NCBI GenBank assembly: GCA_963969395.1
Contig: OZ017804.1
Coordinates: 5,208,001-5,272,000, forward strand
Reading direction: 5' to 3'
Origin: Pseudoscleropodium purum
Lineage: Eukaryota; Streptophyta; Bryopsida; Hypnales; Brachytheciaceae
Length of the DNA stretch: 64,000 bases
The notes beneath the pieces are model-generated. The model had not been told where the DNA came from. It worked only from the letters and a program-made list of their open reading frames with translations, and ran no database searches. The position numbers were made by a program, and so were the translations under genes. This document shows positions 29 to 54,908 of the stretch, piece by piece. How positions within the stretch are numbered: position 1 is the first letter of the stretch; the number at the start of each line of letters is the position of its first letter.

Positions 29-2251
29 ATGGTTCAAACACGGATGCATGACTACGCTGCAGAGGAAGACCAGGAGGTCGCAGTTCACGTTGAGGAGGAC
101 AAAGAGGAGCCAGCTCTACCCTCTGTGAGAGTTGATCCCCTTAAGAGTTGGAGAATTAGCGTTTTTGACGACATGGAAGACCATAATGGTGGATCCATGG
201 TTCGTGACCGCTACTCCAGAAGAGCTGAGGGCGTGGCCTTCAATGATTGGAAGACCAGGTTTCGATCTTGGCAATGCACACAAAGACAACGCAATGCTCT
301 TTTCAATGATTGGTGGGCTTTTGAGCAGCTACCCACCCATCTTGAGTTTGAGGCGTTGCAAGCCTATGATTCTTAGTTTGAGGATCATAGGGTTGAGCTT
401 GAGGAGGTGGAAGACTATTGGGCTCGAAGGGTGGAGTTAGTCACGGCGTTGAAAGAGGGAGCTGCATTCCCAGCAACTCAAGCTTCAAAGACTAGTGATG
501 GAGATGAAGAGAAGGGCGAGGAAGCTACCTCGGGCCCTGATGCAGCACGAGCTGCGCGGTTGCTTTTTAAAGCTGCTACGAGTGGCGCTAGTGGGACTGC
601 AACTACATTCATATCTTGGTTGGCTCGAGCTTCAAATGAGGCAATAGCCACGATGGGCCCTCCTCCTCAGTTTGATCCACTCCGATTGTTTTTTGAGCAT
701 TTGGAGATGGAGTTTGGAGGCATTTGCTGCGATCGCATGCGCCACATCCAGGATTTCAAGAAAGAGATTGGAGACACTCCCCGCATTATGTATACAAGAC
801 TTTCCAAGTTTGCTCGTGAAAGCGGAGATGCATTCACGGAACGCCAGTTGGTGGAGCTTTATATGGGGAAGCAAGACAAGAAGATTCGTGATATGGCACA
901 CCCTCACATGTTGTTGGCATATGGAGGTCGAGCTACTTTAGCTCAAGCTTTTGCTATTGTGGAGCAATTGGATCGAGGGCTATGTGTAGAGGAGGCTGGA
1001 AGATTGTCATCCATTATGACTTCAACACCCAGCCAGACCAAGATTGTTGTTGGTAGTTCTAGTAAGAGCCAAGGGAACCCCAAGGCCTCCAAGCAAATTG
1101 CTATGGCAGCTGAAGTGGAAGTGACAACCAATTCTCGTATGCGGTGTTGGAATTGTGGATTGCTAGTCCACAAAAAGAGAGATTGTCCTACAGATACATC
1201 ATCTGAAGGTAAGAATGGTGGGCAATCAGTTACCAACAAGGGCAATGCAACCACAACAAATAGAGGCCCACAAAAGAAAGTACAAGGTGGAGGAACACCT
1301 TCAAAGTGCACTTATGCACCTTGTAGTCGGGTTGGTCATACGGAGGACAAATGTTGGATGAAGAACCCGCAGTTGAGGCTTCAATCTTTCACCCCACAAG
1401 GTGCTCAAGGGGTTGGATCAAATTCTGGAGGCAACAATCTTGAGGCACGTATGGGAGAGTTGCAAAATACCCTAGCATTGCTCGTTGCAGCGACAGCAAA
1501 GATCACACCAGTTCCTTCTAATTCAAAGCCTGGACCAGATAGGTTTGAATATGGAGCACTTGGTGAGGTGGTTGTAGCGGTGGCTACGAGATCACAAGCC
1601 AATTCTTTGCCAGTTGCACCCATGGTGGAAGGAAACTCAACTACTCCAGGTGGGCCTCATGTGCGTCACCAAGGGCCTCCTGATAGTATTGGGCAATCAA
1701 GATTGCCAATGACATTTGGCTTGGCAGATGTGGTGACTAGTCCATCACTTGAAGCTAGCCCTGATGGAAGAAATTTCCCCGTAGAAAAAAATATGATGGT
1801 GAAGAATTTGGTTGTTAAACTCTTGGAAGTTCCATTGTTTTCAGGGGTTCAGTTGTAGAGTGACAACTTTGATGCAGCTGCCGTATATCATATGGCAGGG
1901 AAAATAATGCAAGGAACGGTCCAGATGCCTGCTAATGTGGCCATGAGGGAGATGGAAGAGTCTTCTTTGGCTGAGGGTGATGTGTGCATAAGGAAGGATG
2001 TTGCTAAAGAAGTAGCGAATGCCTTGCGATGTTGGAAGGGGTGGCTAAAAGAACCTCCTTCGCAAGCAGAGTTTGATAGCCACTTGAATTCAAGTGGAGA
2101 AGTTGTTGAAGTTGCCACAAGCTATTTGGCAACGATACCAGCTCGTGCAACTCGTGAACGTTTACAAGTCAAGCCTGGAGTGGTGCGTTTGGCCAATTCT
2201 AGCCATGTCTTTTCTGTGGCTCAAGGTGAAGCACCTCAAGTATTTCCATAA
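29..2251 (+). pseudogene. gag region of the gypsy polyprotein, with stops
   Basis: Retrotransposon capsid/nucleocapsid precursor that would package the element RNA. The frame from the ATG at 29 continues through stop codons near 374 (tag), 1856 (tag) and 2249 (taa) into protease without a frame change. A CCHC zinc knuckle (CWNC, then H four residues on and C four further) is encoded near 1144-1185. A second Cys/His cluster with wider spacing follows near 1309-1356. The N-terminal part is acidic and charged, and the segment around 660-1000 has the helical gag character of plant gypsy elements. Each stop can be explained by a single C-to-T or G-to-A change. The assignment as gag is firm; exact ends are not known. 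Confidence 0.85.
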
Positions 2252-2899: not shown

Positions 2900-3905
2900 C
2901 AACAACTGGTAGATCTTTCTGATGATCCTAAGGGCATAGTTCTTGTAGAACTATTTGTTGGACTTGGTACTAGTTTGGCTGCAGTTTTGGAGGCAGGATT
3001 GTCTATACAAAGTTATACTTATGTGGACAACAACATAGTGGTGAGCAGAGTTGCAAAACATCATTTGGACCAGTTAAGAATGAAATATCCAAAGCAACTA
3101 CCTGCAAGCGCTATTCAAGGTTGTATGTCTCGAGTCCCTTCAGACATTGCCTTGATTGGAGAAGAAGATCTTTTGAGGTTGGGCCAAGTAGACCTTGTGA
3201 TGGCTGGATGGCCTTCCCAAGGGCATTCCCGGGCTGGTTCTCGCCAAGGACTCCAAGACCCATGATCAAGTTTATTTTGGGAGCTCTTACGGTTGTTGCA
3301 TTGGTGGCAATGTAGACAAGCTACAAGTGTGGCTTATGTTCTTGAGAATGTGCCTCCATTGGGAGATGTTGGAGCTCAAGTTCATGAAGATGCACGATTG
3401 GTATGTCAGCACCTTGGTCAGCCAGTGGCAATGGATGCTGCAGCCCTTGGTTCTTACGCCCATCGTTTCCAGTGGAAGTGGACCAATTTGGCTCATATGC
3501 GAGGGATTTTTGCGGCAGTACATTGCATTAGTCGTCCCGAGGGCAGACATCTTGATGACATTTTGGAGGAGGGGCGATCGGCCCAAACAGTGGTGCAAGA
3601 CGATCAACCACCGTTAGCTATAATCAATCGTGTAGGAATGCCTCGATTGGCATTTCCTACTTTGATGAGTTATCCTCGGTCTTTTGTTTTTTGCAATGGC
3701 GGACCGGGCTTGGTATTTGACAACACTTCTATGAGATTGGAGGAGCCGAGTGCTATTGAGCGGGAACGTGCTATGGGTTTCCATACCGGCACCACTTCTG
3801 GGCTTGGATTGACAGAGTCTCAGCGGCGTCATTGTCTTGGACAAGCCATGGACTTGACATCCATGGTTTGGTTTCTTGGGATATGCCTAACAGCTCAACG
3901 GCACA
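2900..3905 (+). pseudogene. cytosine-5 DNA methyltransferase domain inside gypsy pol
   Basis: DNA (cytosine-5) methyltransferase fold, which would transfer a methyl group from S-adenosylmethionine to cytosine. Motifs appear in canonical order: motif I ELFVGLG (2948-2968); motif IV DLVMAGWPSQ (near 3191-3220); a GLQDP then SSLF stretch around 3250-3280; motif VI ENV (3344-3352); a motif VIII-like RFQWKWTNL (near 3464-3490); a region where a target recognition domain would sit; and motif IX/X-like ERERAMGF and LGQAMDL (about 3750-3860). The frame equals that of gag and RT; the only internal stop is a tga at 3263-3265, where the family usually has Arg. Oddity: the catalytic Cys of the PCQ motif is Ser here (tcc at 3215-3217), so this copy would be inactive even without the stop. 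The family assignment is strong; the subfamily is not determined. Confidence 0.87.
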
Positions 3906-4330
3906 AGAAACTTGGCCTTGAAAGCCATCTGGGGGCAGATGTTTCAGGCCAAGGGGCAAAGGGTGTTGTGCCTCTAGCAGTGGAGAAGATGGCTACTCTA
4001 AATGCCAAGGCATGGCATGATAGTGAGCAGGCTTGCAGTCAAATACTTGAAAAGAAGAGAGATCAAGATGTTGTGGAGTGGCTTGTAGAAGATGAATTGC
4101 GAGGACAACGTGTATTGGCAGCATTGGCTCAAGATTTGGGAATGGATGATGCCAAAGAGAAGTTCAAGAGGGTTTTTCTTACAAAAGAAAATCCATTTCT
4201 TGTCACATCACCTCACTTTGTAGTTGGTGCTAATGTTGGCATTAATGGAGGTGATTCGGTTGGAATGATTGAGAGTGATGATGCATCTATTGTCCTGCAA
4301 AAGGGCAATGGTGTAAGCTCTTCCAACTAG
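3906..4330 (+). pseudogene. linker between methyltransferase and reverse transcriptase
   Basis: About 140 codons in the polyprotein frame, charged and helical (around 4000-4170), with no recognised domain. It ends at a tag (4328-4330) where a Gln codon is one transition away, and the RT N-terminus follows in the same frame. It could be the C-terminal tail of the methyltransferase or a spacer. Confidence 0.6.
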
Positions 4331-4339
4331 CAACCAAAG

Positions 4340-4718
4340 GTGGTGTCAGCACCATTAAAGGGGTCCCTGAAGGAGGAAGTAATCTTGCCAATTTACAAAG
4401 ATTGGGAGATGGACATAGGCATGGGACTCACTGGTGCAGAGGCACGGAAGGTGCGAGCATTCATATGCTTGTACAGGGCTTGCTTTGTTTTTAAACTCAC
4501 TGACTTGGAGGGTTATAAAGGCAAGCTTGTGAGAATTCAATTGGAAGATGATCATCCAGTGTTTAAACGCCCGTATAGGCTTAGCCTTTCAGAAAGAGAC
4601 GGGGTGAAATTGAGGTGCAAAGAACTTTTGGACGCCGGATTGATAGAACTTTCCGATGGAGAGTATGCATGTGCTACAGTGATGCCAGCAAAAAAAGATG
4701 TTCTTGGAAATTGGACGG
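4340..4718 (+). pseudogene. reverse transcriptase, N-terminal part, cut by insertion
   Basis: Start of the gypsy RT, with the conserved segment HPVFKRPYR followed by a helix ending ELLDAGLIELS and then the strand VMPAKKD. At 4718 the coding sequence stops inside a codon at the 5-bp target site gacgg (4714-4718). The same reading frame resumes after the second gacgg at 8041-8045, giving the expected GNWT-EKR-MCGDYRPVN order across the join. This shows that the insertion is later than the gypsy. Confidence 0.9.
4714..4718 (+). repeat. target site duplication gacgg, left copy
   Basis: The five bases gacgg occur directly before the TG of the nested element and again at 8041-8045 directly after its CA. 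They are RT codon sequence duplicated by the insertion. Confidence 0.9.
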
Positions 4719-4913
4719 TGTCGCAGCTTAGAATTTTGATTTTCTTAGTATACACCAAAATAGGAACGGAAACTAGTCATTAGCTAACCGGATCCGATTA
4801 GGTGGGGAAGGAAAACTCAAAATTAGCATGGAACGAGAAGTAGTGGGCCTCTTGGATCTAATCCGGTCAGGAGTAACTAACGACGGAAACGGAATTCAAC
4901 ACGGATTAGGTCT

Positions 4914-4995
4914 AGGACCGGATTATGATGATGAACCGGATTATGATGATGAACCGGATAATGATGGTAAACCGGATTCATGATGACAAACCGGA
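4914..4995 (+). repeat. 18-bp tandem repeat containing accggattatgatgatga
   Basis: Three to four units of about 18 bp, each built on accgg plus gatgatga, lie just upstream of the TATA box. The copy at 10819 has one unit fewer, which accounts for its 18-bp shorter length (3304 against 3322). This could be an enhancer-like U3 repeat. Confidence 0.8.
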
Positions 4996-5009
4996 AAGGG
5001 TCCAGGGAC

Positions 5010-5016
5010 TATATAA
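5010..5016 (+). promoter_or_regulatory. TATA box of LTR-like element copy 1
   Basis: TATATAA lies 290 bp after the element start and about 190 bp before the ORF ATG. The second copy has TATAAAA at the matching place (11092-11098), so the site is conserved between copies. Confidence 0.6.
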
Positions 5017-5207
5017 GGAGGAGCTTTCACTGTTGCACCCCCTTTTAGAAATTCGACCTTGAGAGCGCGCGGTTGAGTTTTTGTCGTTTGTGCGTTTGTG
5101 CGTCTGTACGTTTGTGTTTTGTCTGTTTTGCTTCTAGTTGAGATCGGAGAGAGGAAGTGAGGAACGGGACGTGCGGCTAGGAGAGAGTGAGGTAGATTCG
5201 AGTGGGA

Positions 5208-6844
5208 ATGCCTCCGCTACGTAGGTCTAGACCCGCGAGTCCCTCTGGAGGTGAGGTGAAGCTCCGGAAAGTTATTCCGGTTATTCCCTCTACAGAGTCG
5301 GAAAAGTCTGAACTCATGGATGATCTCAAATCCATGGTTGCGTAGGGTTTGCCGAGAAACCCTAGGGATTTAGGGAGGAGAGAATGGTCAAGGAGCTCCT
5401 CGGAAAGTTGTCCAACCAATTTGACAACACCGTGAGAGGAACTCCCGTCAGCTGGAACGAGGGGATGTAGAGAACGGTTTACGGTTTCCGAGCAGGAGGT
5501 TTGGGGATGGCGAGCCGGAAGGATGAGTTTGTCCGAGGGAAGTTCAAGGGAGCCGTCAACCCGAAGGACGGATACGCGGTCGAGGATTGCGTGGATGACC
5601 GACACCGTCGGATCCTGCAATTCCTGGTTCCGGTTCTTCACCCGGAAAAGCCGACCAAGGTGACGATCACCCTCGGCAACACCATTTTCGGTGCCCTCAG
5701 TGGTACCCGGAAAGTGGACTGGGCACGGATCATTTCCGATCTCGTGGCCCAGCTCGTTAGTAGGGTTGGGAAGAAAAGAGCCACTCTAGTGTGCCCTTAT
5801 CTCTTCCACCTCTATCGGGAGAACCAAGTCCTCACCGACATGGAGGAGAAGGTGTGGAAGACGCAGGAAGTGCTCCTGAAGTATGGGGAGTCGGAGACGG
5901 ATGACGAGGCCGAATTCGACTCCGGGTCAGACCGGGAGTCCAGCGAGGAAGAGGAGGAGCCGATGCCGCCGATCAAGCGACAGAAGCTGACGCCTCCATA
6001 CAAGCGCGGGACGCCTCCCGGTCAAGTCAAACCGGCCCCGGAAGAGAAACCGGAAGCCGAGAAGACCAATTCCGGGGGAGATCCGGATATGCAAGATCCG
6101 TTCAACGGTCTGATCAACGTCCTCTGCAACATCAGGGCGGATTGGGAGGTCAAGCACAGGACGCTTGAGGCGATCGGCAAGTTGGTGGGTGCTGCACCGG
6201 ACAGCAAATTGGCGGAACAAGTGGCGGAGTGCATTACGAATCCGGAAGAGACCCGGAAGCAGGAAGCCGAGATCCGCCGGTTGCAGGAGGAGGTGGATAA
6301 CCTGAAGGCAACTCTTTTTGCCTATCAAGAAGACGTGACGGCCGCTCGGGAGATGGCGGAGGAGACTCGGAAGATAGCCGAGCAGATTAAGGCGGTCCTG
6401 GGAGAGACCGGAACGGCCGCTGCCAAAGCGAAGCTCTTCGACAAGAAGATCCACGAAGAGAAGAAACTATCCGGTTCCCGGATGGTCCGGATTCTCGCGG
6501 ACTTCGCTGAGCAGGTGGAGACGGCAATGGTGGAGGGGCGGAAGGCTGCGGACCGGATCGAGGAGAGCAGCCGGAAGCTGACGGGAGCGACGTGCGACAA
6601 AAGTATTCATCTTTCTGACATCTCGCTACCGGATCTCTTTCCGGACGCGACTGTTGCAAAGGATAGGAAGGATTGGACTCCTGAGTCCAAGAAGTCTACA
6701 CGGACTGGGACTCCGGGCACGAGACCGGATATCACCATCGACCTGGAGTCTCCACCCGGATCGAATCCTGCGGAGGGGGAACGGGTCCGAAATTTGAGTG
6801 AAGTCTTCGAGGAGTTGTCCCGGAGGTCGGAAGCCCGACGATAG
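5208..6844 (+). pseudogene. element ORF, copy 1, frameshifted and interrupted
   Basis: Copy of the ~550-aa protein intact at 11282-12940. Here the ATG at 5208 is kept, but one g is missing near 5335 (ccatggttgcg against ccatgggttgcg). A Trp codon has become tag near 5470, and another small change near 6810 shifts the C-terminus. An uninterrupted stretch runs from about 5501 to 6844. The N-terminal third is a globular domain with pattern TLGNTIFGAL, VDWARII and CPYLFHLY. The middle is acidic with a basic patch, followed by a coiled coil around residues encoded at 6230-6450. The domain resembles what is annotated in plants as a putative plant transposon protein; that is recognition by pattern, not a search. 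Confidence 0.75.
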
Positions 6845-8040
6845 GATCTAGAGTTGTAGGGTAGATAGGATTTTAATTTCAGTTAGGAGTAGGAGCGGAT
6901 CCGGATCCGGCTCAACAGTATTAGGTTAGACTGGAAGTTAGATTAGGGTGGCGGCGGACCCCTACGGGTTTTCCGCTCCTTTTTGTGCTTTTAGGGTTTT
7001 TACCCTTTGTATATAAATCGGTTCCCGCGATGGGAATTGGGAGTTGTTCATTTTGCAAACTTCTTGTACTTTTCTATTCTCTTCATTGGGTGTCTCTCTC
7101 CAGCGCGACAGGATTGTATGATGTGGAGTTAGGATAGTACGAGCCAATTTGTGAGTGATTTCTCCCCTTGGTGTTTATTTTCCGATCCTAGGTGCATGTG
7201 AGTAGGTATCGAAGAGTTGGGAGTGAACTTAGTTCCTCAGCACGTCTAGAGTTTGAGATTCCGGGTGAGAAAGCCGTTGTTAGGCTAGGCGGGTAGGGAG
7301 GGATTCCTTAGCTGCGCTAGAATTCCCGGGTGGGAAATCCGGTTGAGTATCCGATCTCCTGTGAGGTCTCACCACCCGTATGGGTAACGGAAGAACTTTA
7401 GTTGATGTTGGAACGGACGGGTGCACTTGTAACCACCTGTCTTCGCACGGATCGGAAGTAGCATCAAGGTCGTTGTAGTACGAGAGGGTCGAGTGTGGGG
7501 TCTTTGTGTGACCTACGACCCGGATTGCTATCTGGGTTGTTGTGAAGGACCAAACCGGATCCGGATTAGCTTAGGAATTTAGGAAGTAGGACAGTGGGTC
7601 TTCAGCCACTATAAGTCACGGAAGGAGTGGTGGGCCTACCACTCTCAAAATTAAGCGGCGACCCCTCTAATGGTGAAACTGAGGTAAAACCAAACCGGAT
7701 AGGATTACGGGTATAGGATGACCATCCGGACCGGATTGGTCAGGACGGATTTCCAGGATCGGAAGTTGTGAGATCCTGGGATTTGGGTATTTGTACGGAC
7801 CGGATAGTTAGTAGGACCGGAAGAAGGAATAATCCGGTCTATAGTTATCCGGTGTGGTGGTGTTTCTGGTTCTAGATCTAGGACCGGAAAGTAAGATTGG
7901 GATACTGACTGAGCTTAACTGCTTAATAGAGCTAGATACTTCACAGGATCTCGTGGGTTCGATCTTTAGAGTTACTTAGTTATACTCTAGAGCGATTTTT
8001 GTGAGTATAATGGGGAATTGACCTGCCCTGTGCTGCGACA
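6845..8040 (+). other. 3' noncoding part of LTR-like element copy 1
   Basis: About 1.2 kb after the ORF with no coding potential. It contains gtatataaat near 7009-7018, short purine-rich stretches and many accgg/ccgga words. It ends in the terminal inverted repeat. The matching part of copy 2 (12941-14122) is highly similar, so the whole unit moves together. Confidence 0.6.
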
Positions 8041-8045
8041 GACGG
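8041..8045 (+). repeat. target site duplication gacgg, right copy
   Basis: Partner of 4714-4718; gypsy RT coding sequence resumes here. Confidence 0.9.
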
Positions 8046-8640
8046 AGAAGAGGATGTGTGGAGATTACCGTCCTGTTAACAAGAAAAAAAAATCCGATCG
8101 CTATCCCATGCCAACACCTGAGGAGTTATTTGATGCAGTTGGAAGGACAAAAGTCTTTAGCACTTTGGACTTGAGGTCTGGATACCATCAATTGCCATTG
8201 AGACTTGAAGATAGGGTGAAGACGGCATTTTGGGGAGTAGATGAGGATGGAAGAGATATGCTTTTCCATTGGAAGTTCTTACCTTTTGGCTTGAAGAATG
8301 CCCCAGCAGAGTTCCAACGTGTTATGGATCAAGTCTTGAAGGGGTTGCTATTTTCTCGGTGTTACATAGATGATGTGATTATCTTTAGTGATACACCGGA
8401 GGAGCATATACAACACTTGCAACAAGTTTTTGAAAGGTTGCAAGCTTGGGGTCTTCGCTTACATCATGGAAAGTGTAAATTCTTCCATGATCAGTTGCTT
8501 TATTTGGGACATATGATTACACTAGGAGGCTTGGGAGTACAAGAGGCGAAGGTGGAAGCCTTGAAGAGGATCCCAATTCCTAGAGATGTATCAAGGTTGA
8601 GAGCCTTTATGGGACTAGCAAACTATTATCGATGATTTGT
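8046..8640 (+). pseudogene. reverse transcriptase, main part
   Basis: The palm and finger motifs of Ty3/gypsy RT are clear: MCGDYRPVN, FSTLDLRSGYHQ (first catalytic Asp), LPFGLKNAPAEFQ, and the active site YIDD at 8363-8374, followed by LGH. The frame is the same as before the insertion. A tga at 8633-8635 replaces an Arg in the conserved NYYRRF motif and is one C-to-T change from cga. RT and RNase H are otherwise contiguous. Confidence 0.92.
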
Positions 8641-9175
8641 TCATGGGTTCAGTCTCTTGGCAAAACCTTTGACTCAATTGACTCGGGTTGATCAAGAGTG
8701 GATGTGGGGACCTGATCAAGAGAAGGCATTTGAGGCTTTGAAAGGAGTACTTGGTTCAGCACCAGTGTTGAGGCGGCTTGATGCTCGACGACCTTTTCAA
8801 CTCCACATAGATTGGAGTATGTTGGGGATTGGAGCTGTATTGACGCAGAAGGATGATGATGGCAAAGAATATGTTATTGCGTATACTTCACGAAGCAACA
8901 ATGATGCGGAGGCCAAATATTCATCTTATGAGGGGGAGTGCCTAGCTGTGGTGTAGGTAGTTGCACATTTCCATCCATACCTCTATGGCCAGAGCTTTAC
9001 ACTTGTGACTGATCATCAACCTCTAAAATGGTTGATGGAGTCTGATAAACTCATAGGGAAGCTTGCTAGGTGGGCCTTATTGTTGCAAGAGTATGATTTT
9101 GAAGTAATCCACAAGGCGGGGTTGCAAAACTTGGATGCTGATGGCTTGAGCCACAATCCAAGTCCCTTAGAGGAA
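8641..9175 (+). pseudogene. RNase H region of gypsy pol
   Basis: RNase H that would remove the RNA template. The catalytic residues are in LHIDWS (Asp), YEGECLAV (Glu), LVTDHQPLKW (Asp) and LDADGLSHNP (Asp). A tag at 8954-8956 replaces the usual Trp after CLAVV and is one G-to-A change. The connection domain KPLTQLT precedes it. Confidence 0.9.
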
Positions 9176-10548
9176 GATTTGATTGGTGCTCGGTGGCATG
9201 GCTCATGTGATCAAGAGGCAGTGCCAAGGTGGCATGCTTCATCTTATTTGGCTTGGATGGAGGGAAGATCCAACCAAGATTTAGGAAAGACTCGATTGAA
9301 TGTTGTTGATGAGGACTTGGATGAAAGAGGACCTCAAGTTACCACTAATGTGTGGAAAGACCAAAGGGTTCTACATCGTCTTCAACATGGGGAGTTTTTG
9401 CCTAATACTATATCTCAAGAAAGGGACCGAATAGTCCATCGTTTGGCTAGGTTTCATTGGAAGGGTGGCCTTATATTTCGTTGATGGCCGGATGGAACAA
9501 GGAGGGTTGTTCCTAGGCCTAACCAACGTTTTCAATTGATATGTCAGGTTCATGAAGAGTTGGGTCATTTTGGAGTGCTTCGTACGTATTCCATGTTACG
9601 TGGTTTGTATTGGTGGATGGGCATGCGAAAGAGGTAGCAACCTATGTAGGGAGGTGTGAAGTTTGCGATCGAGTTAGATCAAGCTTCAACACTCTAATTC
9701 CCCAATTACAGCCTTTGCCAATCATGGGTTTGGGCTATAAGTGGAGTCTTGATTTTGCCGGGCCATTGATGACTTCATCACGAGGTGCTAAGTATGTACT
9801 TGTGATGGTAGAGCATTTCAGCAAGTGGATTGAGTTGGTGGCACTACCACAAAATTCCGCGGAGTTAGCAGCAGCGGCCTTCCTTGACCGTGTGTTGGCT
9901 AGATTTGGAGCTCCAGCTGAGGTGTTAACTGACCAAAGAAGAGAGTTTCTTGGGGCATTTGAAAAGCTTTGTACTAAAGCTCTAATTGATCACCGTACAA
10001 CATCAAGAAACCACCTAGAGGCTGATGGATTAGTAGAGAGGGTGGTTCAGACGGTGAAGCGCGGTTTGCGCAAGTATGGGTTGTTGGCAGGCAATCACCG
10101 AGATTGGGATTTGAAGTTGCCATGGATAGCAATGGGTTATCGTTTCAGTCGACAGGCATCTCTTGCATCTTATAGCCCTTATCAGCTATTGTATGGCAAA
10201 GAGCCAATGTTACCGTCGGCTTTGAGGGAGAAATTAGATCCAGTTGTAGACTTGGATGACCCAAGAATTTGGGCACAAGTACTACATGATCGAGCTGAGT
10301 ATTTTCAAAGGGCCATGCCAATGGCTATGGAAAATTTGGCAATAGCGCAACACAGAGATACTTTCAGATATGCGCGCATTAGAAGTGGGACTTATAGGCC
10401 TCAACTTCGACGGTTCAAGGTTGGAGATTACGTGTATTTACAACGTGAGGCACCAACAACCTTGGATGTACGGGCCGGCCGGACCATTTTGAGGGTCAAG
10501 GCAATTTTGCCTAGTGGAGTTCTTCTTTTGGAGGGGAAAGATGGATAA
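9176..10548 (+). pseudogene. integrase of gypsy pol, frameshifted
   Basis: DDE integrase. The zinc-binding HHCC module is split: the HEELGHFG part (about 9550-9575) is in the RT frame, while CEVC (near 9656-9667) is in the next frame, so a one-base indel lies around 9600-9640. A tga near 9482 also interrupts the N-terminal part. The core residues are Asp in SLDFAGP (9751-9753), Asp in LTDQRREF (9931-9933) and Glu in GLVERVVQT (10036-10038). A C-terminal SH3-like FKVGDYVYL motif is near 10410-10440. A taa (10546-10548) separates it from the PHD finger in the same frame. Confidence 0.9.
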
Positions 10549-10788
10549 GAGTGTAGAGACAACACAAAAAACTGCACTCTTTGTCATTTGCCAATTGAAG
10601 GGACTATGGATCTAGAGTTGGCAGTGGTTCCACTTGGATTTAAATGTTTTGTATGTGGTGAGAGCAAGGGTGCTGCAACCATGTTATTGTGTGATTCATG
10701 TCAACGAGGTTGGCACATGGCATGTCTTCGACCGCCATTGATTGCTCTTCCTGTTAGACGTTGGACTTGTCCTCGTTGTAGAAAGTGA
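10549..10788 (+). pseudogene. C-terminal PHD finger of the gypsy polyprotein
   Basis: C4HC3 zinc finger that in other proteins reads histone H3 tails. Ligands in order: CFVC (10645-10656), CDSC, WHMAC (His and Cys) and CPRC just before the stop at 10786-10788. The Trp before the last Cys pair is the usual one of PHD fingers. It continues the integrase frame through one taa that is a single change from caa, so it was probably part of the polyprotein. Chromoviruses carry a chromodomain at this position; a PHD finger here may play the same targeting role (inference). Confidence 0.88.
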
Positions 10789-10813: not shown

Positions 10814-10818
10814 GTTGT
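10814..10818 (+). repeat. target site duplication gttgt, left copy
   Basis: gttgt directly precedes the TG end of the second LTR-like element and is repeated at 14123-14127 after its CA end. Confidence 0.88.
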
Positions 10819-11091
10819 TGTCGCAGCTTAGAATTTTGATTTTCTTAGTATACACCCAAATAGGAACGGAAACTAGTCATTAGCTAACCGGATCCGATTA
10901 GGTGGGGAATGAAAACTCAGAATTAGCACGGAACGTGAAGTAGTGGGCTTCTTGGATCTAATCCGGTCAGGAGTAACTAACGACGGAAACGGAATGTAAC
11001 ACGAATTAGGTCTAGGAACGGATGATGATGATGAACCGGATTATGATGGTAAACCGGATTCATGATGACAAACCGGAAAGGGTCCAGGGAC

Positions 11092-11098
11092 TATAAAA
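11092..11098 (+). promoter_or_regulatory. TATA box of LTR-like element copy 2
   Basis: TATAAAA in the same context (after ggtccagggac) as the TATATAA of copy 1, about 190 bp before the ORF ATG. Confidence 0.6.
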
Positions 11099-11281
11099 GG
11101 AGGAGCTTTCACTGTTGCACCCCCTTTTAGAAACTCGACCTTGAGCGTGCGCGGTTGAGTTTTTGTCGTTTGTGCGTCTGTGCGTTTGCGTTCTGTTCAT
11201 TTTGATTCCGGTTGAGATCGGAGAGAGGAAGTGAGGAACGGGACGTGCGGCTAGGAGAGAGTGAGGTAGATGTGAGTGGGA

Positions 11282-12940
11282 ATGCCTCAGCTACGTAGGT
11301 CGAGACAAGCGAGTCCCTCTGGAGGCGAGGTGAAGCTCCGGAAAGTCATTCCGGGTATTCCCTCCACAGAGCCGAAAAAGGCTGAACTCATGGATGATCT
11401 CAGATCCATGGGTTGCGTAGGGTTTGCCGAGAAACCTTGGGGTTTTAGGGAGGAGAGAATGGTCAAGGAGCTCCTCGGAAAGTTGTCCAACCAGTTTGAC
11501 AACACCGTGAGGGGAGCTCCCGTCAGCTGGAACGAGGGGATGTGGAGAGCGGTTTACGGTTTCCGGGCAGGAGGTTTGGGAATGGCGAGCCGGAAGGATG
11601 AGTTTGTCCGAGGGAAGTTCAAGGGAGCCGTCAACCCGAAGGACGGATACGCGGTCGAGGATTGCTTGGATGACCGACACCGTCGGCTCCTGCAATTCCT
11701 GGTTCCGGTTCTTCACCCGGAAAAGCCGACCAAGGTGACGATCACCCTCGGCAACACCATTTTCGGTGCCCTCAGTGGTACCCGGAAAGTGGATTGGGCA
11801 CGGATCATTTCCGATCTCGTGGCCCAGCTTGTTAGTAGGGTTGGGAAGAAAAGGGCCACTCTAGTGTGCCCTTATCTCTTCCACCTCTATCGGGAGAACC
11901 AAGTCCTCACCGACATAGAGGAGAAGGCGTGGAAGACGCAGGAAGTGCTCCTGAAGTATGGGGAGTCGGAGACGGACGACGAAGCGGAATCCGATTCCGG
12001 GTCAAACCGGGAGTCCAGCGAGGAAGAGGAGGAGCCGATGCCGCCGATCAAGCGACAGAAGCTGACGCCTCCATACAAGCGCGGGACGCCTCCCGGTCAA
12101 GACAAACCGGCCCCGGAGGAGAAACCGGAAGCCGAGAAGACCAATTCCGGGGGAGATCCGGATATGCAAGATCCGTTCAACGGTCTGATCAACGTCCTCT
12201 GCAACATCAGGGCGGATTGGGAGGTCAAGCACAGGACGCTTGCGGCAATCGGCAAGTTGGTGGGTGCTGCACCGGACAGCAACTTGGCGGAACAAGTGGC
12301 GCAATGCATCACGAATCCGGAAGAGACCCGGAAGCAGGAAGCCGAGATCCGCCGGTTGCAGGAGGAGGTAGATAAACTGAAGGCAACACTTTTCGCCTAT
12401 CAGGAAGACGTGACGGCCGCTCGGGAGATGGCGGAGGAAACTCGGAAGGTGGCCGAGCAGATCAAGGCGGTCCTGGGAGAGACCGGAACGGCAGCGGCCA
12501 AGGCGAAGCTCTTCGACGAGAAGATCCACGAAGAGAAGAAACTATCCGGTTCCCGGATGGTCCGGATTCTCGTGGACTTCGCCGAGCAGGTGGAGACGGC
12601 AATGGTGGAGGGGTGGAAGGCAGCGGACCGGATCGAGGAGAGCAGCCGGAAGCTGACGGGAGCAACGTGCGACAAAGGTATTCACCTTTCGGACATCTCA
12701 CTACCGGACCTCTTTCCGGATGCAACTATGGCGAAGGACAGGAAGGATTGGACTCCTGAGTCCAAGAAGTCTGCACGGACTGGGACTCCGGGCACGAGAC
12801 CGGATATCACCATCGACCTGGAGTCTCCACCCGGACCGAATCCTGCGGAGGGGGAACGGGTCCGGAATTTGAGTGAAGTTTTCGAGGAGCTAGTCCCGGA
12901 GACCGGAAGCCCGACGATAGGATCTAGAGTTGTAGGGTAG
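11282..12940 (+). CDS. LTR-like element protein, 552 aa, intact
   Basis: The longest undamaged reading frame in the window. The ATG at 11282 is chosen because copy 1 keeps it at 5208; an in-frame GTG lies two codons upstream. Residues 1-60 are basic and Ser/Pro-containing. Residues about 60-215 form a globular domain with TLGNTIFGAL, KVDWARIISDL and CPYLFHLYRE, a pattern I associate with the plant transposon-protein domain seen in gag-like ORFs of plant retroelements. Residues 215-300 are acidic with a Lys/Arg-rich patch (IKRQKL), and residues about 330-440 are predicted coiled coil. The C-terminus is Pro/Ser-rich and charged. It has no RT, integrase or transposase motif, so it cannot mobilise the element alone. 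It could be a gag-like or accessory protein; the function is unknown. Confidence 0.75.
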   Translation: MPQLRRSRQASPSGGEVKLRKVIPGIPSTEPKKAELMDDLRSMGCVGFAEKPWGFREERMVKELLGKLSNQFDNTVRGAPVSWNEGMWRAVYGFRAGGLGMASRKDEFVRGKFKGAVNPKDGYAVEDCLDDRHRRLLQFLVPVLHPEKPTKVTITLGNTIFGALSGTRKVDWARIISDLVAQLVSRVGKKRATLVCPYLFHLYRENQVLTDIEEKAWKTQEVLLKYGESETDDEAESDSGSNRESSEEEEEPMPPIKRQKLTPPYKRGTPPGQDKPAPEEKPEAEKTNSGGDPDMQDPFNGLINVLCNIRADWEVKHRTLAAIGKLVGAAPDSNLAEQVAQCITNPEETRKQEAEIRRLQEEVDKLKATLFAYQEDVTAAREMAEETRKVAEQIKAVLGETGTAAAKAKLFDEKIHEEKKLSGSRMVRILVDFAEQVETAMVEGWKAADRIEESSRKLTGATCDKGIHLSDISLPDLFPDATMAKDRKDWTPESKKSARTGTPGTRPDITIDLESPPGPNPAEGERVRNLSEVFEELVPETGSPTIGSRVVG

Positions 12941-14122
12941 ATAGGATTTTAATTTCAGTTAGGAGTAGGAGCGGATCCGGATCTGGATCCGGCTCAATAG
13001 TATTAGGTTAGACCGGAAGTTAGATTAAGGTGGCGGCGGACCCCTACGGGTTTTCCGCTCCTTTTTGTGCTTTTAGGGTTTTTACCCTTTGTATATAAAT
13101 CGGTTCCTGCGATGGGAATTGGGAGTTGTTCATTTTGCAAACTTCTTGTACCTTTCTATTCTCTTCGTTGTGTATCTCTCTCCAACGCGACAGGATTGTA
13201 TGATGTGGAGTTAGGATAGTACGAGTTGGTTGGCAAGTGAATTCTCCCCTTGGTGTTTATTTTCCGATCCTAGGTGCATGTGAGTAGGTACCGAAGAGTT
13301 AGGAGTGAACTTAGTTCCTCAGCACGTCTAGAGTTTGAGATTCCGGGTGAGAAAGCCGTTGTTAGGCTAGGCGGGTAGGGAGGGATTCCTTAGCTGCGCT
13401 AGAACTCCCGGGTGAGAAATCCGGTTGAGTGTCCGATCTCCTGTGAGGTCTCACCACCCGTATGGGTAACGGAAGAACTTTAGTTGATGTTGGAACGGAC
13501 GGGTGCACTTGTAACCACCTGTCTTCGCACGGATCGGAAGTAGCATCAAGGTCATTGTAGTACGAGAGGGTCGAGTGTGGGGTCTTTGTGTGACCTACGA
13601 CCCGGATTGCTATCTGGGTTGTTGTGAAGGACCAAACCGGATCCGGATTAGCTTAGGAGTCTAGAAGGTAGGACAGTGGGTCTTCAGCCACTATAAGTCA
13701 CGGAAGGAGTGGTGGGCCTACCACTCTCAAAATTAAGCGGCGACCCCTCTGATGGTGAAACAGAGGCAAAACCAAACCGGATAGGATTACGGGTACAGGA
13801 TGACCATTCCGACCGGATTGGTCAAGACGGATTTCCAGGATCGGAAGTTGTGAGATCCTGGGATTTGGGTATTTGTACGGACCGGATAGTTAGTAGGACC
13901 GGAAGAAGGAATAATCCGGTCTGTAGTTATCCGGTGTGGTAGTATTTCTGGTTCTAGATCTAGGACCGGAAAGTAAGATTGGGATACTGACTGAGCTTAA
14001 CTGCTTAATAGAGCTAGATACTTCACAGGATCTCGTGGGTTCGATCTTTAGAGTTACTTAGTTATACTCTAGAGCGATTTTTGTGAGTATAATGGGGAAT
14101 TGACCTGCCCTATGCTGCGACA

Positions 14123-14447
14123 GTTGTTGATTACTTTTCTCATTGACGGAAGATGTACTCATTTTGTAACATTTAATGTTGGAGTATGAGCAGTGGTTTT
14201 TGATATTGAAACTTGGATGGAGATTTCGTAGAGTCCAACTACAATATTGGAAGCGATTGAGGATGGGGCTCAATTGTACCCAGCTTACCCCTTCACTTAT
14301 GATTGATTCAAGCTTAGCAATGAATGGGGGCCTTTCGTCTATCTTCTTCAACATATTGATTACATAGTGAGTGTAGGGAAGTTTATTTCATTGGACTTCT
14401 GTTGCTAGCTGAGTTGCGAGGGCGCTTTACTCAGCTAGGGGGGCAAT
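14123..14447 (+). other. gypsy 3' untranslated region and polypurine tract
   Basis: Gypsy sequence resumes at the right gttgt duplication (14123-14127) and runs without coding potential to the purine run taggggggcaa (about 14436-14446), a good polypurine tract candidate for plus-strand priming just before the LTR. Confidence 0.6.
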
Positions 14448-14449
14448 TG

Positions 14450-14561
14450 AATGGTTGTTCATTCATGCCTTGTTGTAGTGTGGATTTGCATGTGGGCATG
14501 TATGTATGTAGTAGTACATGTAGTTTACGACACTTACTGTTAGCGATACGGAGTGATACGA
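14450..14561 (+). repeat. 112-bp direct repeat, first copy
   Basis: Starts aatggttgttcattcatgcc and ends gatacga; its partner is 14944-15055. The offset is 494 bp. Confidence 0.85.
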
Positions 14562-14943
14562 AAACTGTCATGTTAATCAATGGTGGGTGGTTGGTAGGTT
14601 CTATAGAGCATGTCGTAGGCTTAGTATTGTCCAAATGGCCATGTATTGGTCACTGGGGGCCTATACTAGAGTTTTGAGATTGAAGGAGGTGTGAACGAAG
14701 CTATTTGGGGACTCCTTTGAAGTGGTTGTAACCCTAGGCCGCCCCTTTGCTCCTTCACTCTCTTCAAGTCTTGCATATGTGTGTAGTTTATGAGTTGATA
14801 GGAATTGGAGCATGGATGTAATGATGATTGGTTGTTATACCAATCTTTACTAGTGTTATTCCTTGATTCATCTCGTTTTGCAAGACTAATCCAATTGAGA
14901 CAAAGTAGAAGCTATCTTGGAGTGTTAGGGAAGCTTAAAATTA

Positions 14944-15055
14944 AATGGTTGTTCATTCATGCCTTGTTGTAGTGTGGATTTGCATGTAGACATGTATGTA
15001 TGTAGTAATACATGTAGTTTACGACACTTACTGTTAGCGATACGGAGTGATACGA
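14944..15055 (+). repeat. 112-bp direct repeat, second copy
   Basis: Partner of 14450-14561; it ends two bases before the LTR terminus. Confidence 0.85.
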
Positions 15056-15057
15056 CA

Positions 15058-17322
15058 GTTTGCATTGTCGGGAACGACATCCTTGCGGTTTAGATGATAA
15101 TCATGCGTATCATTCACCAAATCGGGAAAGCCTTTCATAACGTCTTCATCTCCCCATGCTGTCGCACGATTGAAGTCATCCCCGCCATCTACAGCTGAAA
15201 GGCCCTTTCCAAATCCTCGTCATCATCGTCATCATCTTCTTCTAACGTCGGCCTATCTGAATCCTCTGATTCCATCAGATCCACATTATCATTATACCAT
15301 TTTTTTTCATCTTTTTCCTTCGATGCGTTTAATACTTTGGAATTGGTATACACGTACACCAAATCCGCTACTCTCTCCGGCTTCAATTTATTTCGAGATT
15401 TGTTGTGAACAAAAGAATAGTTGCTCCAATTTCGTTCACATGAAGATGATGACACCGATTGAGCCAATATCCTCTTTGCTAATGGAGCTATAAACTTGCC
15501 ACATGCACCTTCAAAATCCCACCAAGCATGTGCAGACAACATTTGATCTCCCGGATTCAACATATTGTGGAATGGAGGTTCCTTGTGTCGAAAAGCCACA
15601 AATTCCTTCACCACTGCTGCATATTCATCCGGTTTACATATTCTCTCCAAAACTTTCTTACATCCTGACATTGCATCTGCGTCATCCGCTAGTTCTTTGT
15701 CATAAAGAAGATATGGATTCAAAAGAGCTGCGGCTGATTGGAAATCATTGTCCACCATTCTTTTTCGGGCATAAAAAGATTGTATCAATAGAATTGCAAG
15801 TTCTTCTAGCAAACAACATGGTGGACTTTGTAATCCGTTCACGTGCTTCTCTAACTTCCTCATGATATGCAACACCTTCCCCATGCATGGTGATTTTGAA
15901 TCCAAATCACGGAGTGCACATATGATTGGTTCAACCATCTCCACATAATTAATGGATCGATTTCAAAAATGGTCATTAAGAACAATTTTCTTCATCGCTA
16001 AGGCCAAGTCTTTTGGTTGGACTTTGGCTCCATGTTTCTTCTTGAGAATATGTACATACTCAATCCATGGCGGATCTACCATTGTTTGTTCCAATGCTCC
16101 TCTTAATTTTGTCAAATGTTCAATTTTGTCAAACGTTCCATCATGATAAATTTAGAGGCGAAACTTGTATCCCCAAGCATCAAGAGACCAAGATTTGGCG
16201 AATACTTTCGCAATAAAGCTAGTGGCATATGTCTCTTGCTGATAAATTTAACTACAAGAACTCCTTTATCCAATTTGGAAGCAATTCATTTCTGTGCAGT
16301 CCAATCCTTCAACAACAAATTCAATGCATGTACAACGCATCCTTAGTAAAAAATATGAGGATATTTTGCAGATATTACATCCCATGCAGACGGATTCACG
16401 GGAGCATTATTCGTAGTTATTAACACGACGTTCTTGGACCCCACTTGTTCAATGAACTTTTTCAACACAGTTGCCAAGTACTCTGCATTTTTTTCACAAC
16501 CACTTATATCCACAGATCCAAGAAATCCTTCACCTGTGGATGATACAAACATGGCATTGATGAGAGGTCGATTAGTCACTGAGCTCCATCCATCAATGGA
16601 CAATGTTGCTCCAAATTTTCGAATGCTATCTTCGGTCCGTACATTCAACTGTGTCTGAATGTTGGTCTTCGCCTCATTCAACAATTTGTACTGAAGGTGG
16701 TGATATGAGGGAGGAATGTATGGCCTACCAAACGTGGCCGTTTTCTTCACTACTTCTTTAAAAGCTGGATTTCGAGCCACAGAAAATGGTATGTTCGCCG
16801 AATAAAAAAAATTTACCCACACTGAATGTAATTTGTGTCTATGACCTTCTTCAAACCCATTCACTAAGCTGCCTTGCTTCTGAGGCTTAAAACTTGATGC
16901 CCTCATGATTTCACATTCACTAGAAGCTTCTGTACTCAAAGTCATTTCAGTTGTGGCACATACCATTAATACCAATTCTTTGGACGCTGGACAAGAGTCT
17001 TCGTGGTCAGAATGCGACACAGCCTTTCCGGCCGAAAACTCTTGGACATCTGAAGGGTCAGGGTTGCCATCCACATTGTCCATTACAACGCGTTTTGGAA
17101 AAACTCCTTCGCAATGCCGAAATAAATTTCAAACTGCCATTGATAATCGTAGACAAAGGCTCATCCTTTATCACGTACACCTCTAGGCCCAGAATAGCCT
17201 AAGTGGCTAAACATATGGCTGAGCCTCTTTGATATGATCGCTTTGCAAAGCCTACATTTTACTTTACCATCCTCTTGCACACTATACCAAGGAGAAAAAT
17301 CCCCCGTCGGTTTGGCCCCCAT
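15058..17322 (-). pseudogene. hAT/DUF659 transposase-like gene (H), left copy, 3' end cut off by gypsy
   Basis: hAT-family transposase. The start is taken as the ATG at 17322 (reverse), matching the other copy at 33518. A BED-type zinc finger follows (CRLCKAIIS, then two His). Next is the DUF659-like core with SIDGWSSVTNRPLIN (about 16600-16560) and finally the hAT dimerisation region with SSSSCERNW and KPERVADLVY (about 15450-15340). Damage: stops around 17160 and 15945, a one-base loss near 15195, and loss of everything after 15058 where the gypsy LTR begins. Relative to the right copy it keeps about 115 bp more around 17060-17160, which may be an intron or an internal deletion in the other copy. 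Confidence 0.85.
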
Positions 17323-18008: not shown

Positions 18009-18190
18009 CAGGGTTGACGAATCTCAACGTCCGCTCCAAAATAGCGTCCGTTTTCTAGACGTCCGGACGCTAGCGGATGCAGCGTCCCTCCCGCCGTTGG
18101 AAGGCGGACGTGCGAAGCGGGGCGGACGGCTGGGGCGGTCGAGTGTACAGACCAGACGAGGCGGACGGACAAGGCGGATGGGGCGAACTT
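18009..18190 (-). repeat. 3' terminal inverted-repeat region of the left R cassette
   Basis: On the plus strand it begins CAGGGTTGACGAATCTC, then GC-rich cgtccg/cggacg words. The same terminus occurs at 37238 (reverse), 42547 and 60955 (reverse). A CAGGG start with TTGAC fits a hAT terminus. Confidence 0.7.
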
Positions 18191-18491
18191 CACATTGCCA
18201 TTAGTCATTAAATATTTTTATATTGTTATGTAATTTGAATGTTACACAATAAAAAATGAATGCATCCACGTAAAATAAGATGTACATATAAAAATATTTT
18301 TATACGCAAATGAAAATATAGCATCTTTATATATAAATATATATGTATAAACAAAATACATGAAAACATAGTTCCAATATCACTATTGAATCCTATACGA
18401 TCTTTTTAAGATCTAAATCTTTCACATTCTTTTTTGTTTTTAAACTATGAAAAGACCATTGTTTTCAAAAAAACAAAATTCTCTTCAAATC

Positions 18492-21400: not shown

Positions 21401-21890
21401 TGTACAAGTCGGGAATGTCCTTTTAATTGGCTTCAAATAGAAGTGGGCAAGCTGTTGTTGTCGGAAACGTGCTTCAATCGATCTTGCGCTCTAATATAAG
21501 TTCAACGTAAACCATACACGCCACGCTATAATTAATATAGCCTTTGCTTTTGGGCTTGTTTCCGAATAGAACACGCCACACCTCCGTAGACCGATGGACA
21601 AAATGTTTGTTGTTGCAAGTCCATGGTTTACAACAAAAATCCCGTGTATGATTCTTGTGCGACTCCTGAGGCCACAACTTGTCAATGTGGTACATTTTAA
21701 CATAGGTCCTGCACATTTTTGATGTCCAATACTCTGCATCTTCATCTTCCCACCCGCTCTCTGCTTTAATTGTAGGGTCATTTAAAATGTCAAGCTGAAG
21801 GTCATGTGTAGCCCCCTTCACTTTGCTCTTTTTTTTGGCTTTGCTTCCTGGAGTCACCCCATCCATATTTCGATCACTTTCGCCGTTCAT
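18492..21890 (-). pseudogene. RING-finger coiled-coil gene (R), left copy, six stops
   Basis: One 1133-codon frame from the ATG at 21890 (reverse) to the stop at 18492, broken by six in-frame stops that are all shared with the right copy. Parts in order: an N-terminal domain shared with the G gene (WTSKMC, YVKMYHIDKLWP, then a VWRVLFG segment); an acidic linker; a long helical/coiled-coil region; a RING-type finger around residues 780-820 (CSLC, CRHTFHITC, CAEC); and a C-terminal region with a basic nuclear-localisation-like patch (KRKQKRKRE). There is no transposase motif. It may act as an accessory ubiquitin-ligase-like protein of the mobile cassette (inference). It lies between H and K. 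Confidence 0.75.
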
Positions 21891-32701: not shown

Positions 32702-32999
32702 GATTTGAAGAGAATTTTGTTTTTTTGAAAACAATGGTCTTTTCATAGTTTAAAAACAAAAAAGAATGTGAAAGATTTAGATCTTAAAAAGATCGTATAG
32801 GATTCAATAGTGATATTGGAACTATGTTTTCATGTATTTTGTTTATAAATATATATTTATATATAAAGATGCTATATTTTCATTTGCGTATAAAAATATT
32901 TTTATATGTACATCTTATTTTACGTGGATGCATTCATTTTTTATTGTGTAACATTCAAATTACATAACAATATAAAAATTTTCTAATGACTAATGGCAA

Positions 33000-33215
33000 T
33001 GCGAAGTCCGCCCTGTTCGCCCCGTCCGTCCGCCCCGTCTAGTCTGTGCGTCTGACCGCCTCGTCTAATGCATCCGATCGCCCGTCCGACCCGTCCGTCC
33101 TATCCGTCTGGCTTGTCCGCCCGCCCGACCCGTTCAACAGCACTGTCCGACTCGTTCGACAGACTGATCCGTCTGACCCGTCCGACCAATCACCCCGTCC
33201 GCGCCGTTGGTTGTT
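33000..33215. repeat. GC-rich junction block between right R and H genes
   Basis: CpG-rich run of cgtccgcc, ccgtccgac and tgtccg words. In the left arm the matching position holds an R 3' terminus plus an H 5' terminus. Here those ends are absent and the GC block joins the two genes directly, as expected after a deletion between similar GC repeats. Confidence 0.6.
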
Positions 33216-54690: not shown

Positions 54691-54908
54691 GTAAGGGTGA
54701 AGTGACTTTTTATTTCTTCTCACTTCAATTCTCCTTCGGTGCCAAGTTGGATGTGCTTCTATTGCTTTATGCGCTAGTTGTTTCTACGGAGTGGAGAGTT
54801 GGGGTCCTCTATCTTTTGTTACTGGTTTACGGTTGATGCCATCACTTTTGACTATAACGTGAGATTTTTTTATTCACTTCAATTGGTTATTGAATCCAAT
54901 TGACAATC

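What the first reader, a model, noticed from the sequence alone, without database searches (positions are those of the whole stretch)
2900..3905. Gypsy retrotransposon encoding a cytosine-5 DNA methyltransferase between protease and RT
Methyltransferase motifs I, IV, VI, VIII and IX/X are visible in order and in the same frame as gag and RT. This is not a standard plant gypsy gene. Acquisition of cytosine methyltransferases by retrotransposons has been reported, as I recall, in some algae and dinoflagellates. A plant-like copy placed between PR and RT would be a notable case of an element writing its own or its host's methylation.
Basis: partly seen in the sequence, partly recalled or inferred. 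Interest (0 to 1): 0.9.

Follow-up and report, generated by a model that had tools for sequence, protein, structure and literature searches.

The report
Plant Gypsy retrotransposon carrying DNA methyltransferase
This is a decayed copy of a jumping gene from a plant-like genome whose better-preserved relatives, including ones in liverworts and peat mosses, carry their own DNA-marking enzyme, an unusual case of a genomic parasite owning the kind of tool hosts use to silence it.

Summary
Confirmed, with corrections. Window 2933-3889 encodes a C5-cytosine methyltransferase (MTase) domain between protease and RT of a Ty3/Gypsy element (454 bits to a profile of relatives; best of 20 shuffles 4.0). 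It is no chance insertion: 14 of 14 long ORF1 clusters examined (P0145-P0158) are Gag-PR-MTase polyproteins with motif IV intact; named hosts include Marchantia, Calypogeia, Riccia and Sphagnum. Relative L001 shows the layout [Gag-PR-MTase] stop [RT-RNaseH-IN-PHD], collinear with the window. The ORF1 stop reads UAG-CARYYA, the tobamovirus-type readthrough context, in both DNA copies available. The fold is closest to DNMT3A/3B. The window copy is dead: catalytic Cys replaced by Ser, seven in-frame stops before the ORF1 end, two 3.3-kb insertions. A DNMT3-bearing Gypsy is already published (Klebsormidium KnitGypsy-Dnmt3; no activity seen in yeast, called inconclusive), so the kind is known. I found no report of land-plant members, of the MTase in the Gag-PR ORF, or of MTase plus PHD. 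Self-methylation is inferred. The window's host and its own-genome copies could not be checked (search unanswered).

The parts
29..2248 (+). Gag region of ORF1 (in-frame stops at 374 and 1856; another at 2249 just after)
   Evidence: Starts MVQTR like 13 of 14 relatives P0145-P0158; 407-1855 is 80% identical to P0154 over 483 aa; stops
1142..1186 (+). CCHC zinc knuckle of Gag (RCWNCGLLVHKKRDC)
   Evidence: Sequence pattern, start; Pfam zinc-knuckle hits only sub-threshold, E 0.15; the pattern C..C....H....C is in 14 of 14 relatives P0145-P0158
2255..2529 (+). Aspartic protease (VLLDTGAQP)
   Evidence: PF13650 E 1e-4; 90% identical to P0154
2933..3889 (+). DNMT3-like C5-cytosine methyltransferase domain, degenerate (stop at 3263; Ser in motif IV)
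   Evidence: 454 bits to the family profile; 85% and 79% identity of its two pieces to P0154 (the second piece includes the tail)
3890..4327 (+). C-terminal tail of ORF1 after the MTase
   Evidence: Ends KGNGVSSSN; relatives P0154, P0155, P0157, P0158, P0001, P0002 also end in SSN
4328..4336 (+). ORF1 stop TAG with CAACCA: UAG-CARYYA readthrough context
   Evidence: L001 has TAG CAATCA at the same stop; motif definition in a PMC3542737 passage
4331..4718 (+). Start of Pol ORF2 (N-terminal part of RT)
   Evidence: 4394-4717 is 68.5% identical to L001 ORF2 residues 17-124
4719..8040 (+). Nested insertion 1 (3,322 bp, TGTCGCAGC...GCTGCGACA) splitting RT; not part of the element
   Evidence: 5-bp duplication GACGG at 4714-4718 and 8041-8045
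8041..9618 (+). Rest of RT (YIDD at 8363) and RNase H, broken by stops 8633, 8954, 9482
   Evidence: RVT_1 4.4e-31, RT_RNaseH_2 1.1e-26; 71% identical to L001; stops
9619..10545 (+). Integrase (other frame after a frame change near 9619)
   Evidence: rve 6.9e-13; 82.5% identical to L001 over IN-PHD
10645..10779 (+). PHD finger at the C-terminus of the integrase (a stop at 10546 precedes it)
   Evidence: PF00628 5.5e-12; also in L001, 4.3e-10; positions
10819..14122 (+). Nested insertion 2 (3,304 bp, 95% identical to insertion 1), after the end of Pol; not part of the element
   Evidence: Duplication GTTGT at 10814-10818 and 14123-14127
14434..14443 (+). Candidate polypurine tract GCTAGGGGGG; a 3' LTR may start near 14448 (inference)
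   Evidence: Lies at the end of a weak alignment with L001 (63.5%, E 0.002), where L001 has the same motif at 6936; the 5' LTR lies outside the window, so LTRs are not verified

Best explanation
A decayed copy of a Ty3/Gypsy retrotransposon family that carries, as a conserved component, a DNMT3-like C5-cytosine methyltransferase as the last domain of its Gag-PR-MTase polyprotein. Shown (in sequence): domain order; conservation of the MTase across many element copies; DNMT3-like predicted fold of a relative; end of ORF1 soon after the MTase; Pol (RT-RNaseH-IN-PHD) in the same frame after a UAG-CARYYA stop. Inferred: (1) Pol is made by occasional readthrough of that stop, so the MTase is produced at Gag level rather than at the lower Pol level and enters the particle; (2) in working copies it methylates the element's own new DNA, so that incoming copies look like host heterochromatin or avoid being treated as foreign; (3) the PHD finger on the integrase reads histone H3 tails and steers insertion. 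The window copy itself does none of this. My separate estimates: identity 0.97, readthrough 0.65, self-methylation of element DNA 0.3 (lowered from 0.35 after reading that the closest published enzyme gave no methylation in yeast).
Against: KnitGypsy-Dnmt3, the closest published enzyme, gave no methylation in yeast; the authors call this inconclusive because human DNMT3B also failed. Only two DNA copies of the ORF1 stop could be read, and one decay stop in the window (2861, TAGCAGCTA) fits CARYYA by chance. In the window ORF2 has an in-frame ATG 78 nt after the stop, so reinitiation is possible; non-ATG starts were not weighed. Some relatives run from MTase into RT without a stop (P0127, P0162, P0165; the Marchantia model P0161) or place it between RNase H and IN (P0169, P0170), so the Gag-level placement is not universal. 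15 of 97 relatives covering motif IV lack PC[QEN]. In one of nine pairs (P0145/P0152) Gag is as conserved as the MTase (81 vs 79%). P0151 lacks the usual start. No activity, particle or methylome data; no dN/dS.
Confidence: 0.7

Rival explanations
1. A one-off insertion or transduction of a host methyltransferase gene into a single Gypsy copy, without a role for the element.
For: The window copy is dead and heavily damaged.
Against: The same Gag-PR-MTase fusion with motif IV intact occurs in 14 of 14 clusters P0145-P0158 and in Marchantia proteins, and family members from several host lineages are related in one tree.
Confidence: 0.02
2. The MTase is kept but does not methylate the element's DNA: it acts on RNA (genomic RNA or primer tRNA), on host DNA to disturb silencing, or as a structural or nucleic-acid-binding part of the particle.
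For: No activity data for this family; placement with Gag fits a particle component; KnitGypsy-Dnmt3 and SymbioLINE-Dnmt showed no DNA methylation in yeast (inconclusive), and RNA methylation is discussed for the LINE enzyme.
Against: Catalytic motifs are conserved in 14 of 14 clusters P0145-P0158 and the fold matches DNA-methylating DNMT3 enzymes best.
Confidence: 0.38
3. The enzyme comes from a bacterial or phage C5 MTase rather than from a eukaryotic DNMT3.
For: Motif IV reads PCQ, not PCN as in DNMT3A (alignment; that bacterial enzymes often read PCQ is recalled); the best phage enzyme scores about the same as a DNMT3A segment against the family profile (59.5 vs 60.1 bits, phage set preselected for shared motifs).
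Against: Fold ranking puts DNMT3 chains above bacterial ones; motif VIII and X regions align with DNMT3A; seven phage rows split from the family plus DNMT3A with 100/100 support (midpoint root, DNMT3A branch very long); distant members P0099 and P0059 read PCED and PCQD.
Confidence: 0.15
4. The ORF1 stop is not read through; Pol is expressed by reinitiation, splicing or a separate transcript, and the CARYYA match is chance.
For: Two DNA copies only; a chance CARYYA stop occurs at 2861; the window has an ATG 78 nt downstream; the Marchantia model P0161 runs from the MTase into RT, possibly by annotated splicing.
Against: The match sits at the homologous stop in two copies whose coding segments are 59-70% identical in DNA; L001 has no in-frame ATG for 348 nt.
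Confidence: 0.3

Closest known systems
KnitGypsy-Dnmt3 of Klebsormidium nitens (de Mendoza et al. 2018, PMC5890265)
   Same: LTR Gypsy element with an intronless Dnmt3-related methyltransferase in its coding region, key residues conserved, Ka/Ks below 0.2 (section 9).
   Different: There the DNMT is described in the Pol polyprotein ORF, with DIRS-like repeat structure; here it closes the Gag-PR ORF before a stop. The main text has no mention of PHD, readthrough or gag (word search). Its sequences were not returned here, so common descent is untested. In yeast it gave no methylation, inconclusive (section 10).
SymbioDIRS-Dnmt3 and SymbioLINE-Dnmt of Symbiodinium (same paper)
   Same: Retrotransposons with their own cytosine methyltransferase; SymbioDIRS enzymes active on CG de novo in yeast.
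   Different: DIRS and LINE elements with tyrosine recombinase or endonuclease, dinoflagellate hosts (passages).
DNMT3A/DNMT3B catalytic domain
   Different: PCQ instead of PCN in motif IV; Pfam reported no other domain beside MTase and protease in the relatives scanned; about 25% identity in the structure alignment.
Chromoviruses (chromodomain Gypsy elements)
   Same: Gypsy elements with a chromatin-reader domain (on the integrase C-terminus, recalled; PMC3350952 seen only in the search listing).
   Different: Reader here is a PHD finger, not a chromodomain, and the element also carries a DNA methyltransferase.
Marchantia polymorpha proteins MARPO_0008s0049, Mp_4g09160, Mp_6g11220 and Calypogeia, Sphagnum and Riccia entries
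   Same: Members of the same MTase family; the five Marchantia entries examined carry the PR motif and the MTase.
   Different: Named only as hypothetical, unnamed or uncharacterized proteins or, for two Sphagnum troendelagicum entries, DNA (cytosine-5-)-methyltransferase; about 36-50% identical in the comparisons made.

Membership tests
Ty3/Gypsy LTR retrotransposon | RT-RNase H-integrase order in Pol | tested here: met
Ty3/Gypsy LTR retrotransposon | Gag with zinc knuckle and aspartic protease upstream | tested here: met
   PF13650 1e-4, just under its curated cut-off (23.4 vs 24.3 bits), 90% identical to P0154 protease; CCHC by pattern only, Pfam sub-threshold
Ty3/Gypsy LTR retrotransposon | Flanking LTRs and target-site duplication | tested here: inconclusive
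   5' end outside the window; 3' LTR only suggested by a polypurine tract
C5-cytosine methyltransferase (PF00145) | Family-level sequence match | tested here: met
   Relatives above cut-off (6 of 6, 3 of 7, with 2 below it and 2 without a listed match); window copy 454 bits to the family profile but 16.9 bits to PF00145, below the cut-off of 22
C5-cytosine methyltransferase (PF00145) | Catalytic Cys in motif IV, window copy | tested here: not met
   WPSQG at 3209-3223; so a dead relic of this enzyme
C5-cytosine methyltransferase (PF00145) | Catalytic Cys in motif IV, relatives | tested here: met
   14 of 14 clusters P0145-P0158 and 8 of 9 further members; PC[QEN] in 82 of 97 relatives covering it
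DNMT3 subfamily | Nearest solved fold and profile | tested here: met
   DNMT3A/B/C rank first
DNMT3 subfamily | PCN in motif IV (as in DNMT3A) | tested here: not met
   PCQ in the family; hence called DNMT3-like, not filed as DNMT3
DNMT3 subfamily | Groups with DNMT3 in a tree with DNMT1, CMT, DRM, DNMT2 | tested here: inconclusive
   Only one DNMT3A segment and seven phage enzymes were in the tree
KnitGypsy-Dnmt3 | DNMT inside the Pol ORF of a Gypsy element | tested here: not met
   MTase lies in the Gag-PR ORF, stop at 4328; same in L001. It works like KnitGypsy-Dnmt3 but is not filed as a member; distant relatives such as P0162 and P0169 do have it in Pol
KnitGypsy-Dnmt3 | Sequence clade of the K. 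nitens DNMTs | not tested
   No entry named K. nitens was listed or 54

The most novel reading that the evidence does not exclude
A lineage of land-plant Gypsy elements that is both writer and reader of the epigenome: it places a DNMT3-like methyltransferase before a programmed UAG readthrough stop so that the enzyme is made at Gag level and packaged, methylates its own cDNA in the particle, and uses a PHD finger on the integrase to choose chromatin for insertion. The MTase has been carried, and moved to other positions in Pol, since before liverwort and moss elements diverged.
Probability: 0.28. Interest if true: 0.85.

Novelty: new variant of a known kind. Interest (0 to 1): 0.62.

Why it matters
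Hosts use cytosine methylation to silence retrotransposons. A retrotransposon lineage that keeps its own methyltransferase under apparent constraint raises the question of what the parasite gains. This family has members in Marchantia polymorpha, a tractable model plant, so the question could be tested by removing the domain or by reading the methylation of particle DNA. The Gag-PR-MTase arrangement with a putative readthrough stop predicts dosage and packaging that can be assayed directly.

Tried and rejected
Chance match: rejected (454 bits vs at most 4.0 in 20 shuffles). Single-copy insertion: rejected. First window MTase piece against PDB sequences: no match, so profile and fold were used. 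PF00145 on the 3266-4327 piece: no match. Plasmid collection with P0062: no match. Viral contigs with P0025: 8 stretches, none a relative; with the A3 alignment 28 loci, distant phage-type MTases, not this family; open frames from all 32 loci L002-L033 were scored and 7 of the 28 viral ones used as outgroups. Genome contigs: 5 loci, of which 4 are Streptomyces MTases; L001, filed under a Synechococcales MAG, is a plant-type element and is taken as contamination. Score-only assignment to DNMT3 over phage enzymes is inconclusive. No DNMT1 or CMT rows are among the 50 shown by VIA-align; that is no evidence of absence. Rfam (gathering) and tRNA scans of the window: nothing. dN/dS: not possible, since only the window and L001 were available as DNA; domain identities of nine chosen pairs used instead. 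Tree rows: 72 of 172 relatives, those with at least 230 aa of the domain; so Riccia and S. jensenii entries are not in it. Literature for a bryophyte MTase-bearing Gypsy or a PHD-bearing Gypsy integrase: searches listed no paper whose title or abstract start told of it, but several listings were capped (5 of 41,326; 68: 20 of 511; 83: 25 of 1,036) and subscription journals and supplements are not covered. Passages of PMC10952607, PMC9516144 and PMC9994747 on host DNMT3 in bryophytes were seen; none spoke of retrotransposon-borne DNMT3.

Full report
What was checked. Translation of frame 2 shows them, at the positions given. Single-sequence searches are weak because the copy is damaged and divergent: PF00145 gives E 0.0046 on the first open piece and nothing on the second, and the first piece has no match in PDB sequences. 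The second piece nevertheless finds 59 relatives in the protein database at E <= 0.01, the best 65% identical, many with PF00145. A profile of 39 relatives, not including the window, gives 454 bits on the window and at most 4.0 in 20 shuffles; the domain occurs once in the 64 kb.

Anatomy. L001, a 9,285-base contig with a 127-base end overlap, holds an unbroken relative. Its first frame carries Gag, PR and MTase and ends in a stop; its second, in the same frame, carries RT, RNase H, integrase and a PHD finger (PF00628, 4.3e-10). The window is collinear with it: Gag from 29, PR from 2255, MTase 2933-3889, ORF1 stop 4328, Pol from there, RT split by a 3,322-base insertion with a GACGG duplication, integrase from 9619, PHD 10645-10779 (5.5e-12), and a second insertion of the same kind at 10819-14122 with a GTTGT duplication. 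The contig is filed as a cyanobacterial MAG; because it is a eukaryote-type element I take it as contamination.

State of the window copy. In the gag frame there are stops at 374, 1856, 2249, 2699, 2828, 2861 and 3263 before the ORF1 stop at 4328, more in Pol (8633, 8954, 9482, then 10546 in the other frame), a frame change near 9619, and Ser where relatives have the catalytic Cys. It is a dead copy. The closest unbroken relative found, P0154, is 80% (Gag), 90% (PR) and 85 and 79% (the two MTase pieces) identical.

A conserved component. The profile search listed 120 of 141 relatives and the ORF1 search 36; the lists overlap. Fourteen clusters, P0145-P0158, are Gag-PR-MTase proteins of 1,252-1,451 aa (13 of 14 start MVxTR; P0151 starts later); 14 of 14 have a CCHC pattern, the PR motif and MTase motifs I, IV, VI and VIII, 13 of 14 the motif-X pattern, and where motif X was found the ORF ends 116-163 residues after it. 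Nine further members checked in the same call, including Marchantia and Calypogeia, have motif IV in 8 of 9 (P0161 lacks it) and VI in 8 of 9. Of 97 relatives covering motif IV, 82 have PC[QEN] and 15 do not. Between P0154 and P0145 the MTase (60%) and PR (67%) are far more alike than Gag (36%), linker (32%) and tail (31%), as expected if the catalytic domain is under constraint; over nine chosen pairs the MTase exceeds the linker in nine and Gag in eight (P0145/P0152 is the exception, 79 vs 81%). Named hosts are Marchantia polymorpha, Calypogeia fissa, Riccia sorocarpa, Sphagnum jensenii and S. troendelagicum, with a partial match in Closterium. Other arrangements exist: MTase-RT-RNaseH-IN (P0162), MTase-RT (P0127, P0165), RT-RNaseH-MTase-IN-PHD (P0169, P0170), MTase-IN-PHD (P0167, P0171). 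So the domain has moved inside the element while staying in it. In the tree of 82 rows the window pairs with P0154 (100/99) in a clade apart from the Marchantia, Calypogeia and S. troendelagicum rows.

Expression. The ORF1 stop is TAG CAACCA in the window and TAG CAATCA in L001. Both fit UAG-CARYYA, described for tobamoviruses in a passage of PMC3542737. CARYYA follows 10 of 6,433 stop trinucleotides in the window, one of them the decay stop at 2861. In L001 the next in-frame ATG is 348 nt downstream, at the edge of RT; in the window it is 78 nt downstream. Readthrough is the likeliest way to make Pol, but rests on two DNA copies. If it holds, the MTase is made with Gag, unlike the Pol-borne DNMT of KnitGypsy-Dnmt3.

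Mechanism. De Mendoza et al. (PMC5890265; abstract, sections 9, 10 and 11 and passages seen) expressed retrotransposon DNMT domains in yeast: both SymbioDIRS-Dnmt3 copies methylated CG de novo, while SymbioLINE-Dnmt and KnitGypsy-Dnmt3 did not, which they call inconclusive since human DNMT3B failed too. They propose cDNA methylation. I take that as the likeliest single role here, unproven and at 0.3, with RNA methylation, action on host DNA or a non-catalytic role as rivals. The PHD finger's solved relatives by sequence include PHF12, KMT2D, CHD4, KDM5 and UHRF1; that several of these read the H3 tail is recalled.

Novelty. A Gypsy element with a Dnmt3 is published for a charophyte; a 2025 paper (PMC12344493, passages seen) mentions DNMT3 members within retrotransposons of streptophytes and dinoflagellates (there as LTR Copia and DIRS). 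I found no report of land-plant members, of the Gag-PR-MTase arrangement, or of the MTase plus PHD combination in the listings, several of them capped; supplements could not be read. I rate it a new variant of a known kind. The host of the window and its other copies remain unknown because the own-genome search did not complete.

Noticed in passing
window 4719-8040 and 10819-14122: Two 95%-identical 3.3-kb insertions with TGTCGCAGC...GCTGCGACA ends, 5-bp target duplications, an ORF of 447 and 554 aa and no internal direct repeat of 60 bp or more: they look like solo LTRs that contain a gene.
   Followed up: partly
window 15058-17041 and 33679-35637: Two inverted, 94%-identical stretches of a hAT-like transposon; DUF659 was found in an ORF of the first and the hAT dimerisation domain in an ORF of the second.
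   Followed up: no
window 18134-21576, 29617-33060 and 54337-58484: A large repeat with several unknown ORFs; two inverted copies are 99.4% identical, so recently duplicated.
   Followed up: no
window 14445-14561 and 14939-15055: A 117-bp direct repeat (96.6%) next to the candidate 3' LTR.
   Followed up: no
L001 and P0008: Members of this plant-type element family are filed under bacterial MAGs (Synechococcales, Obscuribacterales), probably eukaryote contamination of the bins.
   Followed up: partly
P0169, P0170, P0162: The methyltransferase occupies different positions within Pol in other element groups, as if shuffled.
   Followed up: partly
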